NCBI GenBank assembly: GCA_018715835.1 | Contig: DVKV01000168.1 | Span: 1-36,647, forward strand | DNA: 36,647 nucleotides | Direction of reading: 5' to 3' | Source of the DNA: Candidatus Faecousia intestinavium | GTDB taxonomy: Bacteria; Bacillota; Clostridia; Oscillospirales; Oscillospiraceae | Shown here: piece by piece, positions 217 through 4,649 of the stretch | Layout: every line of letters begins with the position of its first letter | How positions within the stretch are numbered: the first letter of the stretch is position 1 | Made by a program: the position numbers and the translations under genes | Notes under the pieces: generated by a model | Seen by the model: the letters and a program-made list of their open reading frames with translations, nothing else | Database searches by the model: none | Told to the model about the DNA's origin: nothing

Positions 217-408
217 TTATTCATCCGGAGCGGATTTCACATCAGGATTTTTCTGACTGCCGCCGCAGCTGCCGCAGCCTCCCCGGGAGCAGGCGCAGCC
301 CTCCGGGCAGCCGATGCACTTTTTTCCGCTCTTTTTTCCCCGGTAGACATAATATGCAGCAGCCGCAACAATCCCCACCAGGATGACAATGGCAATAAAA
401 TCCGCCAT
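217..408 (-). CDS. FeoB-associated Cys-rich membrane protein (63 aa)
   Basis: MADFIAIVILVGIVAAAAYYVYRGKKSGKKCIGCPEGCACSRGGCGSCGG...: one N-terminal TM helix followed by a Cys-rich tail; ATG overlaps the feoB stop (ATGA). Confidence 0.85.
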   Translation of the reverse strand: MADFIAIVILVGIVAAAAYYVYRGKKSGKKCIGCPEGCACSRGGCGSCGGSQKNPDVKSAPDE

Positions 409-2411
409 CAGGCTCTCACCCCGCTTCCGGCATAGGCCCGCTTCACTTCCCGGTCTGCCGCCAGGCACAGGGAAATCAGGATTCCGGCGAAAACAGCCAC
501 GGCAATCAGCCCGGGCACAAAGCCCGCTCCCACGGCGCCGGTGGTGATCAGGGTGCCGATCTGGTAGACCAGGAAGCCCACGGTATAGCCGGTGCCCAGC
601 TGGAGGCCGATGCCGCCCCAGAGCCACTTGGCGCTCTTCATCTCGGAATTCATGGCGCCAATGGCGGCAAAGCAGGGGGGCGTGTACAGATTGAACATCA
701 GATAGGCCAGGGCAGCCACCTTGGTGATGGCAATGATGCCCGCAACCTCGGCACCGGAGCCTTCCAGCATGGCCAGCTCTTCCGTATCGATGAAGTTCTC
801 AAGCCCCACGAAGCAGACCGCCAGGGTGCCTACCACGTTCTCCTTGGCAATGAAGCCGGTGACAGCGGCGGCTGCCAGCTGCCAGCTGAGGACGCCCACA
901 ATGGGCACCAGCAGGTAAGCAAAGGGATGGGCAATGGAAGCCAGGATGGAACTGTCGGCAGTTTCCGCCACCTGGAAGCTCCAGGTGAACGTCTGCATGA
1001 CCTGCACGGCAGTGTTGCACAGCAGAATGATGGTAGCAGCCTTTACAATGTAGGCCCAGCCCCGGGCGCACATGGCCTTGAGGGCAAAGGTCAGGGAGGG
1101 AACCTTGTATTCCGGCAGTTCGATGATAAAGAAGGATTTCCGGTTCTTGTACCCGGCGATCTTGTTCACCAGCAGGGCTCCCAGGAAAATCAGCACGATG
1201 CCGGTAACGTACATGACAAAGCTGACCCAGCCGGCATTGTCAAAGAACGCACCGGCAAACAGGGCGATGACGGGGATCTTGGCGCCGCAGGGCATGAAGG
1301 GGGTGAGCATGGCGGTGGCCCGGCGCTCCCGCTCGTTGCGGATGGTGCGGCTGGCCATGACGCCGGGGATGGCACAGCCGGTGCCGATGACGAAGGGAAT
1401 CACGGATTTTCCGGACAGGCCCACCTTTTTGAAGATGGGGTCCAGCACCACGGATACCCGGGACATATAGCCGCAGTCTTCCAGCAGGGCAATGAGGAAA
1501 TACATCACCATCACCAGAGGCAGGAAACCCACCACGGCGCCCACGCCGCCGATGATGCCATCGGCCAGAAGGGCAGTCAGCAGCGGATTGGCGTCAGCCA
1601 GGCTGTCCGCCGCAAAGCCCTGGAATGTTTCAATCCAGGCAACCAGGGTATCCGCAATGTACGGCCCCACCCAGACCTGGGAGATCTGGAACACCAGGAA
1701 CATGATGCCCGCAAAAATGGGGATGCCGAAGAACTTGTTGGTGAGAACGGCGTCAATGGCATCTCCGGTTCCCTTCTCCCGGGTCAGCACCTTCCGGGTC
1801 TCCACCTGGGACACCAGCTGATTGACAAAGTCGAACCGCTTCCGGTCCGCCTCTTCCACTGCCTTTTTATCCGTCAGGTCAATGCTGCCCTGACTGTACG
1901 GCGCCCGCTGGCCTTTGCCCCGGAGCCCGGCGGCAGCCTCCACCACCGTCTTCAGCCCTTCCCCGGCAGTGGACACGGTTTCCAGCACCGGGCAGCCCAG
2001 TTTTTCGGAAAGCAGGGCCGTATCAATGGTGGTTTGCTTTTTCACATTGATGTCGCTTTTGTTCAGCGCCACCACCACCGGAATGCCCAGTTCCAACAGC
2101 TGGGTGGTGAAGAACAGGCTGCGGCTCAGGTTGGTGGCGTCCACAATGTTGATGATGGCGTCCGGGTGCTCCTTGCGCACATAGGAGCTGGTGATGCTCT
2201 CCTCCGAGGTGAAGGGGGACATGGAATAGGCGCCGGGCAGGTCCACGGCAATCAGCTCTTCCGAGCCGCTGTAATAGGCTTTCTTGATGGTGTGTTCTTT
2301 CTTTTCCACCGTCACACCGGCCCAGTTGCCCACCTTCTCGCTGCGCCCGGTCAGGGCGTTGTACATGGTGGTTTTGCCGGAGTTGGGGTTGCCAGTCAAG
2401 GCGATACGCAT
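408..2411 (-). CDS. feoB: Ferrous iron transport protein B (GTPase-permease)
   Basis: MRIALTGNPNSGKTTMYNALTG (G1), DLPGAYSMSP (G3), NKSD (G4), Gate-type membrane segments; RBS AGGAGGAAATTTC. Confidence 0.97.
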   Translation of the reverse strand: MRIALTGNPNSGKTTMYNALTGRSEKVGNWAGVTVEKKEHTIKKAYYSGSEELIAVDLPGAYSMSPFTSEESITSSYVRKEHPDAIINIVDATNLSRSLFFTTQLLELGIPVVVALNKSDINVKKQTTIDTALLSEKLGCPVLETVSTAGEGLKTVVEAAAGLRGKGQRAPYSQGSIDLTDKKAVEEADRKRFDFVNQLVSQVETRKVLTREKGTGDAIDAVLTNKFFGIPIFAGIMFLVFQISQVWVGPYIADTLVAWIETFQGFAADSLADANPLLTALLADGIIGGVGAVVGFLPLVMVMYFLIALLEDCGYMSRVSVVLDPIFKKVGLSGKSVIPFVIGTGCAIPGVMASRTIRNERERRATAMLTPFMPCGAKIPVIALFAGAFFDNAGWVSFVMYVTGIVLIFLGALLVNKIAGYKNRKSFFIIELPEYKVPSLTFALKAMCARGWAYIVKAATIILLCNTAVQVMQTFTWSFQVAETADSSILASIAHPFAYLLVPIVGVLSWQLAAAAVTGFIAKENVVGTLAVCFVGLENFIDTEELAMLEGSGAEVAGIIAITKVAALAYLMFNLYTPPCFAAIGAMNSEMKSAKWLWGGIGLQLGTGYTVGFLVYQIGTLITTGAVGAGFVPGLIAVAVFAGILISLCLAADREVKRAYAGSGVRA

Positions 2412-2532
2412 GAAATTTCCTCCTCTTTTGCTTGGGTGATTGTTTTTATTCCAGCCCAGAAGTTACCCTATGCTAACCATCGGGCAGAACAAACCGAAAT
2501 CGTTCTTCTTTGCCATGGCAGGGCCACAATGC

Positions 2533-2745
2533 CTATATCTCAATGGCGGAGGCCAGCTGGGTGTCCATGTTGTAGCGCCCATCCTTGATGGAGACAACAC
2601 AGCCGCCTTTCAGATGGGATACCACGGTAATGGGCGCGCCCGCGTAGCAGCCCAGGGAAAACAGGAAGGCATCGAGCTCCTCGTCATCGGTCTGCACCTG
2701 TTTGATGAGATATTCCATGCCTTCTTTTGCTTGGGTCAAATTCAT
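2533..2745 (-). CDS. feoA: FeoA family ferrous iron transport protein
   Basis: Small SH3-like protein MNLTQAKEGMEYLIKQVQTDDEELDAFLFSLGCYAGAPITVV... directly upstream of feoB; start trimmed from the track's 2772. Confidence 0.88.
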   Translation of the reverse strand: MNLTQAKEGMEYLIKQVQTDDEELDAFLFSLGCYAGAPITVVSHLKGGCVVSIKDGRYNMDTQLASAIEI

Positions 2746-2775
2746 AAGCCTCACCTGATTAATTCCGCACATTAA

Positions 2776-2823
2776 TTAGCCTTTGCTAACTAATGCCGTT
2801 AAATTTGAATTAGCAGCCGCTAA
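2776..2823. promoter_or_regulatory. Two inverted-repeat operators in the feoA leader (TTAGC-N4-GCTAA at 2776-2789 and 2810-2823)
   Basis: Identical 5-bp arms and 4-bp spacer; centres 34 bp apart, just downstream of the feoA -10. Confidence 0.75.
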
Positions 2824-2833
2824 CTTCAAACGA

Positions 2834-2862
2834 ATCATACTCCTCTCCTCCGGTTTTGTCAA
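2834..2862 (-). promoter_or_regulatory. Predicted sigma-A promoter of feoAB
   Basis: Minus strand TTGACA (2862-2857), 17-bp spacer, TATGAT (2839-2834). Confidence 0.75.
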
Positions 2863-2920
2863 GAGCATTTTTGAAAAAAGTGGAAATTCCCACGTGGATT
2901 TCCGCCGTTTTTTCCAAATT

Positions 2921-2940
2921 TTGTTAGTTAAAACTAACAA
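2921..2940. promoter_or_regulatory. Central palindrome TTGTTAGTTAAAACTAACAA, a variant operator
   Basis: Perfect 9-bp arms around AA; core TTAGT-N4-ACTAA has the same geometry as the flanking sites. Confidence 0.65.
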
Positions 2941-2964
2941 ACGGGAGAAATATCCAAAAAGGTC

Positions 2965-2993
2965 TTGACAAACGGCCACAGCGGCGGTATGCT
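2965..2993 (+). promoter_or_regulatory. Predicted sigma-A promoter of the microprotein/DUF3793/flavodoxin/regulator operon
   Basis: TTGACA (2965-2970), 17-bp spacer, TATGCT (2988-2993). Confidence 0.75.
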
Positions 2994-3048
2994 GTTCTTG
3001 GTTAGCAGTCGCTAACCAAGAACATATCCGTAAGTTAGCAAGCGCTAA
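2993..3048. promoter_or_regulatory. Two inverted-repeat operators at the rightward promoter (extended 2993-3024; second core 3035-3048)
   Basis: TGTTCTTGGTTAGC-AGTC-GCTAACCAAGAACA (14-bp perfect arms) and TTAGC-AAGC-GCTAA; core centres 33 bp apart. Confidence 0.78.
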
Positions 3049-3072
3049 CCGCAAAAACCATCAGGAGGGCCT

Positions 3073-3177
3073 ATGATTTCTTTGGAATTGCTGCAATCGT
3101 TGGGCGCAGTTGCCGGTATTATCTGCATCCTGCTTCTGTGCGCCTGGCTCAAGCACCATCTCCGGAACCACAAATAA
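3073..3177 (+). CDS. Putative 34-aa single-pass membrane microprotein
   Basis: ATG after RBS AGGAGGGCCT; MISLELLQSLGAVAGIICILLLCAWLKHHLRNHK*; not in the supplied ORF track. Confidence 0.6.
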   Translation: MISLELLQSLGAVAGIICILLLCAWLKHHLRNHK

Positions 3178-3775: not shown

Positions 3776-4210
3776 ATGTTTATGAGTAAAGTTGGAATTG
3801 TATATTGGAGCGGCACCGGCAATACCGAAGCCATGGCCCACGCCGTTGAGGAGGGCGCCAAGACCGCCGGAGCAAACGTGACCCTGTTCACTGCCGGAGA
3901 ATTTTCCGGCTCCATGGTGCATGATTTTGACGCGCTTGCCTTCGGCTGCCCTTCCATGGGGGTGGAGCAGCTGGAAGAAAATGAATTTGAGCCCATGTTC
4001 CAGGACTGTGAAGGCCAGCTGAAAGAGAAGACCATTGGTCTGTTCGGCTCTTACGGCTGGGGCGACGGAGAATGGATGCAGACCTGGGAGGATACCTGCC
4101 GGAGCGCCGGCGCCCGGCTGGTCAGCGGCGGCGTGATCTGTCAGGAAGCGCCGGATGAGGAGGCGCTGGAAAAATGCCGGGCGCTGGGCGCCGCTTTGGC
4201 ACAAGCATAA
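3776..4210 (+). CDS. Flavodoxin
   Basis: KVGIVYWSGTGNTEAMAHAVEEGAK (FMN phosphate loop), FGCPSMGVEQLEE, GLFGSYGWGDGEWM; start could also be 3782. Confidence 0.92.
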   Translation: MFMSKVGIVYWSGTGNTEAMAHAVEEGAKTAGANVTLFTAGEFSGSMVHDFDALAFGCPSMGVEQLEENEFEPMFQDCEGQLKEKTIGLFGSYGWGDGEWMQTWEDTCRSAGARLVSGGVICQEAPDEEALEKCRALGAALAQA

Positions 4211-4271: not shown

Positions 4272-4649
4272 ATGGGCAGAAAAACCACCAGACGGGAAGA
4301 CTACCTGAGAATCATCGCGCAGCTGTCCCGCAAGGGAAAAGTCCGGGGGGCGGACATCGCCAGAATCCAGGGGGTTTCCAGGCCCACGGTGTCTGTGTTT
4401 CTCAAGCGGCTTGCCGCAGCCGGTGACATCACCATAGATTCCCACCACAACATCTCCCTGACCGACCAGGGAAAGGCCGTCGCCTGCACCGTCTTGGACA
4501 AGAACTTCACCCTGTATACCCTTCTGGTACAGCTGGGGGTTCCGGAGGAAATTGCCCGGCAGGATGCCTGCCGGATGGAACATACGCTGAGCGAGCAAAG
4601 CTGCCTGGCGCTGAAAAAGCTTCTGGAGAAGAATCCGGCGCCAGAATAA
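4272..4649 (+). CDS. DtxR/MntR-family metal-dependent transcriptional regulator
   Basis: N-terminal winged HTH (GADIARIQGVSRPTVSVFLKRLAAAG), metal/dimerisation motif DACRMEHTLS; no SH3 domain. Confidence 0.88.
   Translation: MGRKTTRREDYLRIIAQLSRKGKVRGADIARIQGVSRPTVSVFLKRLAAAGDITIDSHHNISLTDQGKAVACTVLDKNFTLYTLLVQLGVPEEIARQDACRMEHTLSEQSCLALKKLLEKNPAPE

What the first reader, a model, noticed from the sequence alone, without database searches (positions are those of the whole stretch)
2771..3060. Near-mirror-symmetric five-operator array between two divergent iron promoters
Seen directly: both promoters are TTGACA-17-TATGMT, and each has a pair of TTAGC-N4-GCTAA operators starting at or just after the -10, with centres 34 bp (feo side: 2782.5 and 2816.5) and 33 bp (right side: 3008.5 and 3041.5) apart, about three helical turns. 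A fifth variant palindrome (TTGTTAGTTAAAACTAACAA, core TTAGT-N4-ACTAA) sits between the two -35 elements. One right-side site is extended to 14-bp perfect arms (TGTTCTTGGTTAGC-AGTC-GCTAACCAAGAACA). Inference: a metal-responsive repressor, plausibly the DtxR/MntR-like protein encoded at 4272-4649 at the end of the same operon, binds in phase and controls both promoters together, possibly by looping. The extended palindrome could also form an RNA hairpin near the transcript 5' end.
Basis: partly seen in the sequence, partly recalled or inferred. Interest (0 to 1): 0.72.

Follow-up and report, generated by a model that had tools for sequence, protein, structure and literature searches.

The report
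Paired DtxR-type iron operators in Clostridia
Two back-to-back iron-uptake operons of an uncultured gut bacterium share a set of short mirror-image DNA sites, spaced in pairs 33-35 bases apart, and the same sites sit before iron genes across many gut Clostridia, which points to a repressor of the diphtheria-toxin-repressor family (not the usual Fur) that senses iron there.

Summary
Four exact TTAGC-N4-GCTAA sites flank two TTGACA-17-TATGMT promoters as a 34-bp pair and a 33-bp pair, with a fifth site (TTAGT-N4-ACTAA) between. A decayed sixth sits before feoB at 2463. The only other exact site in this 1.87-Mb draft genome lies in its second feoAB operon. Two same-genus (Faecousia) genomes keep all six positions. 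Across Oscillospiraceae/Ruminococcaceae/Lachnospiraceae, 61 of 79 DUF3793 loci carry TTAGY-N4-RCTAA within 500 bp upstream; three control palindromes give 0. 37 of 69 neighbouring pairs are 33-35 bp apart, and the first site overlaps the transcription start. Each site is a single-dimer DtxR/IdeR half-box (TTAG-N6-CTAA). The regulator is most likely not the window's DtxR-like gene (4272-4649), whose metal ligands are decayed, but a paralog on contig C31 with intact iron-type ligands (M,E,H,C,E,H). Its orthologs sit between or beside the operators in many relatives, and it is the only DtxR/Fur-class protein found in one 99%-complete congener. The looping and RNA-hairpin ideas are not supported. 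New variant of a known kind; no binding or expression data.

The parts
2774..2791 (.). Operator 1 (18-bp RGTTAGY-N4-RCTAACY class; core 2776-2789), distal member of the feo-side pair
   Evidence: paired site conserved in L266 and L267
2808..2825 (.). Operator 2 (core 2810-2823), promoter-proximal member of the feo-side pair, over the predicted start of transcription
   Evidence: offset from -10 start to centre 22.5 bp, within the conserved 18-24 bp class
2834..2862 (-). feoA/feoB promoter TTGACA-17-TATGAT
   Evidence: 11 of 12 consensus matches
2921..2940 (.). Central operator 3, TTGTTAGTTAAAACTAACAA; orthologous position TTAGCTTTAACTAA / TTAGCTTTGACTAA in relatives
   Evidence: same variant class found paired with TTAGC sites in L111, L091, L112
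2965..2993 (+). Right-hand promoter TTGACA-17-TATGCT
2993..3024 (.). Operator 4 (core 3002-3015) inside a 14-bp-arm perfect palindrome; the extension is specific to this genome
3033..3050 (.). Operator 5 (core 3035-3048), 33 bp centre to centre from operator 4
2461..2478 (.). Operator 6, decayed (TTACCCTATGCTAA), between feoA and feoB just upstream of feoB; intact in L266/L267 and in the feoA2-feoB2 gap of this genome's second feo operon
2533..2745 (-). feoA
   Evidence: Pfam PF04023, E 2.7e-12
408..2411 (-). feoB
   Evidence: TIGR00437 above its cut-off; PF02421, PF07664
3073..3177 (+). Conserved 34-aa hydrophobic peptide, first ORF of the right-hand operon
   Evidence: no family match, but 65% identical at the same place in L266/L267
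3199..3750 (+). DUF3793 protein (function unknown)
   Evidence: PF12672, E 2e-57
3782..4210 (+). Short-chain flavodoxin
   Evidence: TIGR01753 above its cut-off
4272..4649 (+). P0001: DtxR/MntR-like paralog with a decayed metal site (ligand positions D,R,N,C,E,H)
   Evidence: PF02742 and PF01325 over cut-off; best PDB match E. coli MntR 2h09; ligand comparison

Best explanation
The array is the regulatory centre of an iron regulon run by a DtxR/IdeR-type repressor. Each 18-bp site (RGTTAGY-N4-RCTAACY) binds one repressor dimer. Two dimers per promoter, centred 33-35 bp apart with the first over the transcription start, cooperate to shut off feoAB on one side and the DUF3793-flavodoxin operon on the other when ferrous iron is plentiful. 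When iron runs short both are released, so the cell imports Fe2+ and (by established physiology) can replace ferredoxin with iron-free flavodoxin. The iron sensor is most likely the C31-encoded DtxR paralog (ligands M,E,H,C,E,H), not the window's P0001. P0001 is an iron-repressed duplicate that is losing its metal site; I infer that it still binds DNA and acts as a metal-blind feedback repressor or a dimer partner. Shown here: sites, spacing, conservation, promoter overlap, regulon content, ligand states, gene neighbourhoods. Inferred: binding, iron as effector, cooperativity, direction of regulation, P0001's role.
For: Operator: 61 of 79 DUF3793 loci found without using the motif have TTAGY-N4-RCTAA within 500 bp upstream, against 0 for three control palindromes and 0 inside the gene. 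Flanking positions not used in the search are also conserved (G at -8 in 88%, A/G at -9 in 87%), giving an 18-bp site, the length bound by a MntR dimer (PMC11275975). Code: TTAG-N6-CTAA is the single-dimer half of the IdeR box TTAGGTTAGSCTAACCTAA (half-site TTAGGNNNNCCTAA; PMC8464063). Pairing: 37 of 69 neighbour pairs are 33-35 bp apart. Promoter overlap: offset from the -10 start to the first site clusters at 18-24 bp (38 of 69 upstream regions), as in IdeR-repressed genes (PMC10317159). Iron: sites precede feoAB in both operons of this genome and, in relatives, FecCD permeases and NEAT-domain proteins. Regulator: the C31-type gene lies within 1.5 kb of feo or DUF3793 in 43 of 107 cases, sits between the feo and DUF3793 operator pairs in L252 of the same genus, and is the only DtxR in G049, which has 6 sites, is 99% complete and has no Fur-family hit. 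Ligands M and C are the iron-selective combination (PMC4805248, PMC10317159).
Against: No binding or expression data. P0001-type genes are also tied to the motif: four relatives carry an operator pair just upstream of them, so P0001 could share or dominate the role. The C31 gene of this genome is not next to an operator. Genomes with C31-type proteins of another recognition helix (KPSVSVAMK) also have sites at feo, so the link of KPSVSRA with high site number (19/42 vs 3/48, p 1.7e-5) may reflect regulon size or relatedness. Other spacings (24-25, 38, 44-55 bp) exist, so 33-35 bp is not obligatory.
Confidence: 0.77

Rival explanations
1. P0001 (4272-4649), encoded in the controlled operon, is the main metal-dependent repressor of the array, an ordinary autoregulated DtxR/MntR loop.
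For: Same operon; DtxR family; P0001-type genes in G158, G143, G124 and G144 have operator pairs 33-90 bp upstream of their start; recognition helix RPTVS..LKRL resembles E. coli MntR 2h09.
Against: Metal ligands decayed: E11 replaced by K/R/H in all 14 P0001-type proteins examined, H77 lost in six including the window's, and D8, H77 and H103 all lost in four operon-borne orthologs. P0001-type is rare (2 of 101 family genomes clearly) whereas the motif is widespread, including genomes whose only DtxR is C31-type. Where a P0001-type is found, a C31-type is nearly always present too.
Confidence: 0.1
2. The two paralogs share the operators (a refinement of the best explanation, not exclusive with it): C31-type supplies iron-dependent repression and P0001 supplies metal-independent feedback, competing or forming heterodimers at the same sites.
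For: Both types are linked to the same motif; P0001 is itself inside the regulon; DNA-binding residues are kept (PTV invariant) while the metal site decays.
Against: No binding data; recognition helices differ (KPSVSRA against RPTVSVF), so P0001 may bind other DNA.
Confidence: 0.45
3. A manganese-responsive MntR controls the sites.
For: Best NCBIfam scores of both paralogs are to MntR models, all below cut-off; E. coli MntR is the best PDB match.
Against: Iron-type ligands M and C in the C31 protein; regulon made of FeoAB, FecCD, NEAT proteins and flavodoxin; all five exact sites in this genome are at Feo loci.
Confidence: 0.1
4. The palindromes act as RNA hairpins in the 5' leaders (attenuation or protection) rather than as DNA operators.
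For: Sites fall in predicted 5' leaders; the leader 3000-3080 folds better than shuffles (z -3.06).
Against: Heteromorphic sites on the sense strand upstream of DUF3793 show C..A 11 against U..G 6, no pressure to keep base pairs; the central site lies upstream of both promoters; no Rfam match; fold strength follows from any palindrome.
Confidence: 0.03

Closest known systems
IdeR/DtxR iron regulon of Actinobacteria (19-bp box TTAGGTTAGSCTAACCTAA)
   Same: TTAG-N6-CTAA unit; Met/Cys/Glu/His primary metal ligands in the C31 protein; site over the transcription start; iron-uptake genes (PMC8464063, PMC10317159)
   Different: One-dimer sites as the rule instead of two interleaved dimers; inner base C/T instead of G; sites in pairs 33-35 bp apart; short protein (about 127 aa) without the SH3-like domain; Clostridia, where DtxR proteins are usually said to be manganese sensors
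MntR of B. subtilis and E. coli
   Same: Short two-domain protein, 18-bp operator of two 9-bp inverted repeats, multi-dimer arrays (PMC11275975); closest PDB relatives
   Different: MntR arrays in mneP sit 19 bp apart (18-bp sites separated by 1 bp) with touching dimers, here 33-35 bp; manganese ligands D8/E99 against M/C; iron regulon
SloR and PgMntR-type regulators acting on several sites or with mixed Fe/Mn ligands
   Same: Cooperative repression from several sites (SloR, PMC12096823); Cys ligand in PgMntR (PMC4805248)
   Different: Different half-sites and spacing; PgMntR carries C-terminal FeoA domains, absent here

Membership tests
DtxR/MntR family regulator (protein level) | N-terminal winged HTH plus metal-binding/dimerisation domain (PF01325 + PF02742) | tested here: met
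   P0001 exceeds both Pfam cut-offs; C31 protein over the PF02742 cut-off
IdeR/DtxR-type iron sensor | Primary site Met10/Cys102/Glu105/His106 in the proposed regulator (C31 protein) | tested here: met
   M,C,E,H at the aligned positions; 15 of 16 C31-type rows examined in the genus have them; numbering from PMC4805248
IdeR/DtxR-type iron sensor | Same ligands in the window's own P0001 | tested here: not met
   D,R,N,C,E,H; four orthologs V,H,Q/R,E,E,Q/R
IdeR/DtxR-type iron sensor | 19-bp box with two interleaved TTAG-N6-CTAA units | tested here: not met
   Sites are single units; positions outside the 18 bp are hardly conserved
IdeR/DtxR-type iron sensor | Operator over -10/+1 of iron-uptake genes | tested here: met
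   Offsets 18-24 bp from the -10 start in 38 of 69 upstream regions
IdeR/DtxR-type iron sensor | Fe2+-dependent binding and repression | not testable with these tools
   needs biochemistry
MntR (manganese) | D8/E11/H77/E99/E102/H103 binuclear site | tested here: not met
   C31: M,E,H,C,E,H; P0001: D,R,N,C,E,H
MntR (manganese) | NCBIfam MntR equivalog cut-offs | tested here: not met
   85.4 bits against 153 for NF008273; all others below cut-off
Fur-controlled feo | Fur protein and Fur box at feo | tested here: inconclusive
   One Fur-family protein in this draft, PerR-like, next to a rubrerythrin gene; congener G049 has none. No Fur-box scan was done.

The most novel reading that the evidence does not exclude
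In Oscillospirales-type Clostridia iron homeostasis is run by a short IdeR-like DtxR protein instead of Fur, reading single-dimer half-boxes as phased pairs 33-35 bp apart. Within Faecousia a duplicated DtxR, carried inside the regulon, has lost its metal site and become a metal-blind feedback or dominant-negative regulator on the same operators.
Probability: 0.4. Interest if true: 0.75.

Novelty: new variant of a known kind. Interest (0 to 1): 0.58.

Why it matters
A recent IdeR review states that most low-GC Gram-positives use Fur for iron and keep DtxR proteins for manganese, and that it remains to be investigated where IdeR half-sites are used (PMC10317159, PMC8464063). Here half-sites are the standard operator of a large group of gut Clostridia, at iron genes, with a strictly kept pair spacing. 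That gives a ready-made regulon motif for predicting iron responses in many uncultured gut genomes, a first functional context (iron limitation) for DUF3793, and a natural example of a metalloregulator duplicate losing its metal site while keeping its DNA-binding helix. I found no description of this motif or regulon in the open-access library searched.

Tried and rejected
RNA hairpin as the main element: rejected on the sense-strand C..A/U..G count and no Rfam match.

Looping through the central site: not supported, distances drift between orthologs.

The 14-bp extended palindrome: not conserved, treated as incidental.

P0001 as the metal sensor: downgraded on ligand decay and distribution.

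The link of the KPSVSRA recognition helix with operator number is significant but confounded by relatedness and regulon size, and feo-adjacent sites also occur with KPSVSVAMK proteins, so it is not used as proof of specificity.

An alignment of P0001-type proteins could not be used for a collection scan, so DUF3793 was used instead. In one search one L252 reference was on the wrong strand and returned an MntP-like frame. Paper searches for DUF3793 or for this regulon returned nothing relevant. No structure prediction was run: ligand positions rest on sequence alignment to solved DtxR/MntR chains.

Full report
OBSERVATION. Reading the window confirms every stated element: exact TTAGC-N4-GCTAA at 2776, 2810, 3002 and 3035, the variant TTAGT-N4-ACTAA at 2924, and two TTGACA-17-TATGMT promoters pointing outwards. 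The genome is a 1.87-Mb, 82%-complete draft. It holds 5 exact copies of the main motif (reversed control: 1). Four are here. The fifth lies between feoA and feoB of a second feoAB operon, whose TTGACA-17-TATCAT promoter is followed directly by a one-mismatch site GTTAACAATAGCTAAC. The exact variant occurs once, here. A sixth, decayed site (2463-2476) lies in the feoA-feoB gap.

SURROUNDINGS. Left: feoA, feoB. Right: a 34-aa hydrophobic peptide, DUF3793, a short flavodoxin, and a DtxR/MntR-like protein P0001. The genome has two DtxR-family proteins (P0001, and one on contig C31) and one Fur-family protein, PerR-like, beside a rubrerythrin gene.

CONSERVATION OF THE ARRAY. Two same-genus genomes keep the locus with all six sites: L266 (766; 1065/1098; 1201; 1289/1322) and L267 (762; 1061/1094; 1198; 1289/1322), pair spacing 33 bp, the central site heteromorphic TTAGCTTTRACTAA. 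Named near-copies of these loci (L274, Candidatus Faecousia faecavium; L273) place the window in or next to the genus Faecousia.

CONSERVATION OF THE OPERATOR. In 80 named genomes picked by DUF3793 similarity alone, 61 of the 79 with enough sequence carry TTAGY-N4-RCTAA within 500 bp upstream of DUF3793. Inside the gene: 0 of 80. Three control palindromes: 0 everywhere. These span records titled Oscillospiraceae, Ruminococcaceae and Lachnospiraceae. In family genomes the sites also precede feoA and sit 20-40 bp before feoB. Over 367 unique sites, positions outside the search pattern are conserved (G at -8 88%, R at -9 87%), giving RGTTAGY-N4-RCTAACY, 18 bp.

SPACING AND PROMOTERS. Of 69 neighbour pairs within 150 bp, 15 are 33, 19 are 34 and 3 are 35 bp apart (binomial p about 1e-42 against uniform spacing; related genomes make this an overstatement, but the intervening sequences differ). 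In other families 34, 38 and 44-50 bp occur. The first site is centred 18-24 bp after the start of the -10 in 38 of 69 upstream regions, i.e. on the transcription start; in the window it is 22.5 and 20.5 bp.

WHAT BINDS. TTAG-N6-CTAA is the one-dimer half of the IdeR/DtxR box. IdeR binds such 14-bp half-sites as a single dimer, and their wider use was left open (PMC8464063, PMC10317159). MntR dimers cover 18 bp (PMC11275975). So the code is DtxR-type. In relatives the motif precedes FecCD permease and NEAT-domain genes (and ABC transporter and ZIP transporter genes) as well as feo, which points to iron.

WHICH PARALOG. The C31-type is near universal in the family and keeps M,E,H,C,E,H in the genus (15 of 16 rows), the M/C combination favouring iron (PMC4805248, PMC10317159). 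It lies within 1.5 kb of feo or DUF3793 in 43 of 107 cases and has an operator in its own upstream region in 20 of 107 (controls 0). In L252 it lies between the feo pair and the DUF3793 pair. Congener G049, 99% complete, has six exact sites, one DtxR (C31-type, with a site about 115 bp upstream of it) and no Fur-family hit. Family genomes with a KPSVSRA recognition helix have 3 or more sites in 19 of 42 cases against 3 of 48 (p 1.7e-5; control motif no difference; not corrected for relatedness). P0001-type proteins are additional copies, separated from the 16 C31-type rows by a strongly supported branch (100/99). All 14 lack E11 and six also lack H77; the window has D,R,N,C,E,H and G156, G120, G192, G225 have V,H,Q/R,E,E,Q/R. 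Their DNA-binding helix core (PTV) is kept. Four relatives have an operator pair directly before the P0001-type gene, so it belongs to the regulon.

MECHANISM. Most likely: Fe2+-loaded C31-type dimers occupy both members of each pair, cover the start site and block both promoters; iron shortage releases both operons. Binding, metal, cooperativity and the role of P0001 are inferred.

LIMITS. Draft genomes; many loci were fetched because they hold the motif (the DUF3793 set was not); no experiment; the paper library holds open-access papers only, so 'not described' is limited to that.

Noticed in passing
L248:2575-2643, and the same place in L254, L268, L264 (between fld and the P0001-type gene): One member of the operator pair before the P0001-type gene forms an arm of a hairpin followed by a T-run (terminator-like), so operator and possible attenuator overlap.
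   Followed up: no
window 408-2411; L085, L092, L309, L283: The window's FeoB is 88-92% identical to FeoB in several other genera whose neighbouring proteins are only about 60-70% identical; possible horizontal transfer of this feoAB type.
   Followed up: no
window 3073-3177; L266/L267 about 1362-1463: A 34-aa hydrophobic peptide with no family match is conserved (65%) as the first ORF of the DUF3793-flavodoxin operon.
   Followed up: partly
window 2921-2940; L267 about 1190-1225: The central operator lies in a longer A/T-rich palindrome in the orthologs (TTTCAAAATGTTAG...CTAACATTTTTGAAA), upstream of both promoters; role unclear.
   Followed up: no
window 217-408 (minus): Short membrane-anchored Cys-rich ORF directly after feoB, like the small Cys-rich proteins often found with FeoB; a similar one follows feoB2 (L005 about 4316-4489).
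   Followed up: no
L252:771-1130 (minus strand): Frame with similarity to the manganese efflux pump MntP (below cut-off) downstream of DUF3793 in a congener.
   Followed up: no
L096:5951-6334, L112:1621-2034, L211: A third, divergent DtxR-like protein without the usual metal ligands lies next to DUF3793-flavodoxin in some family genomes: a possible second case of metal-site loss.
   Followed up: no
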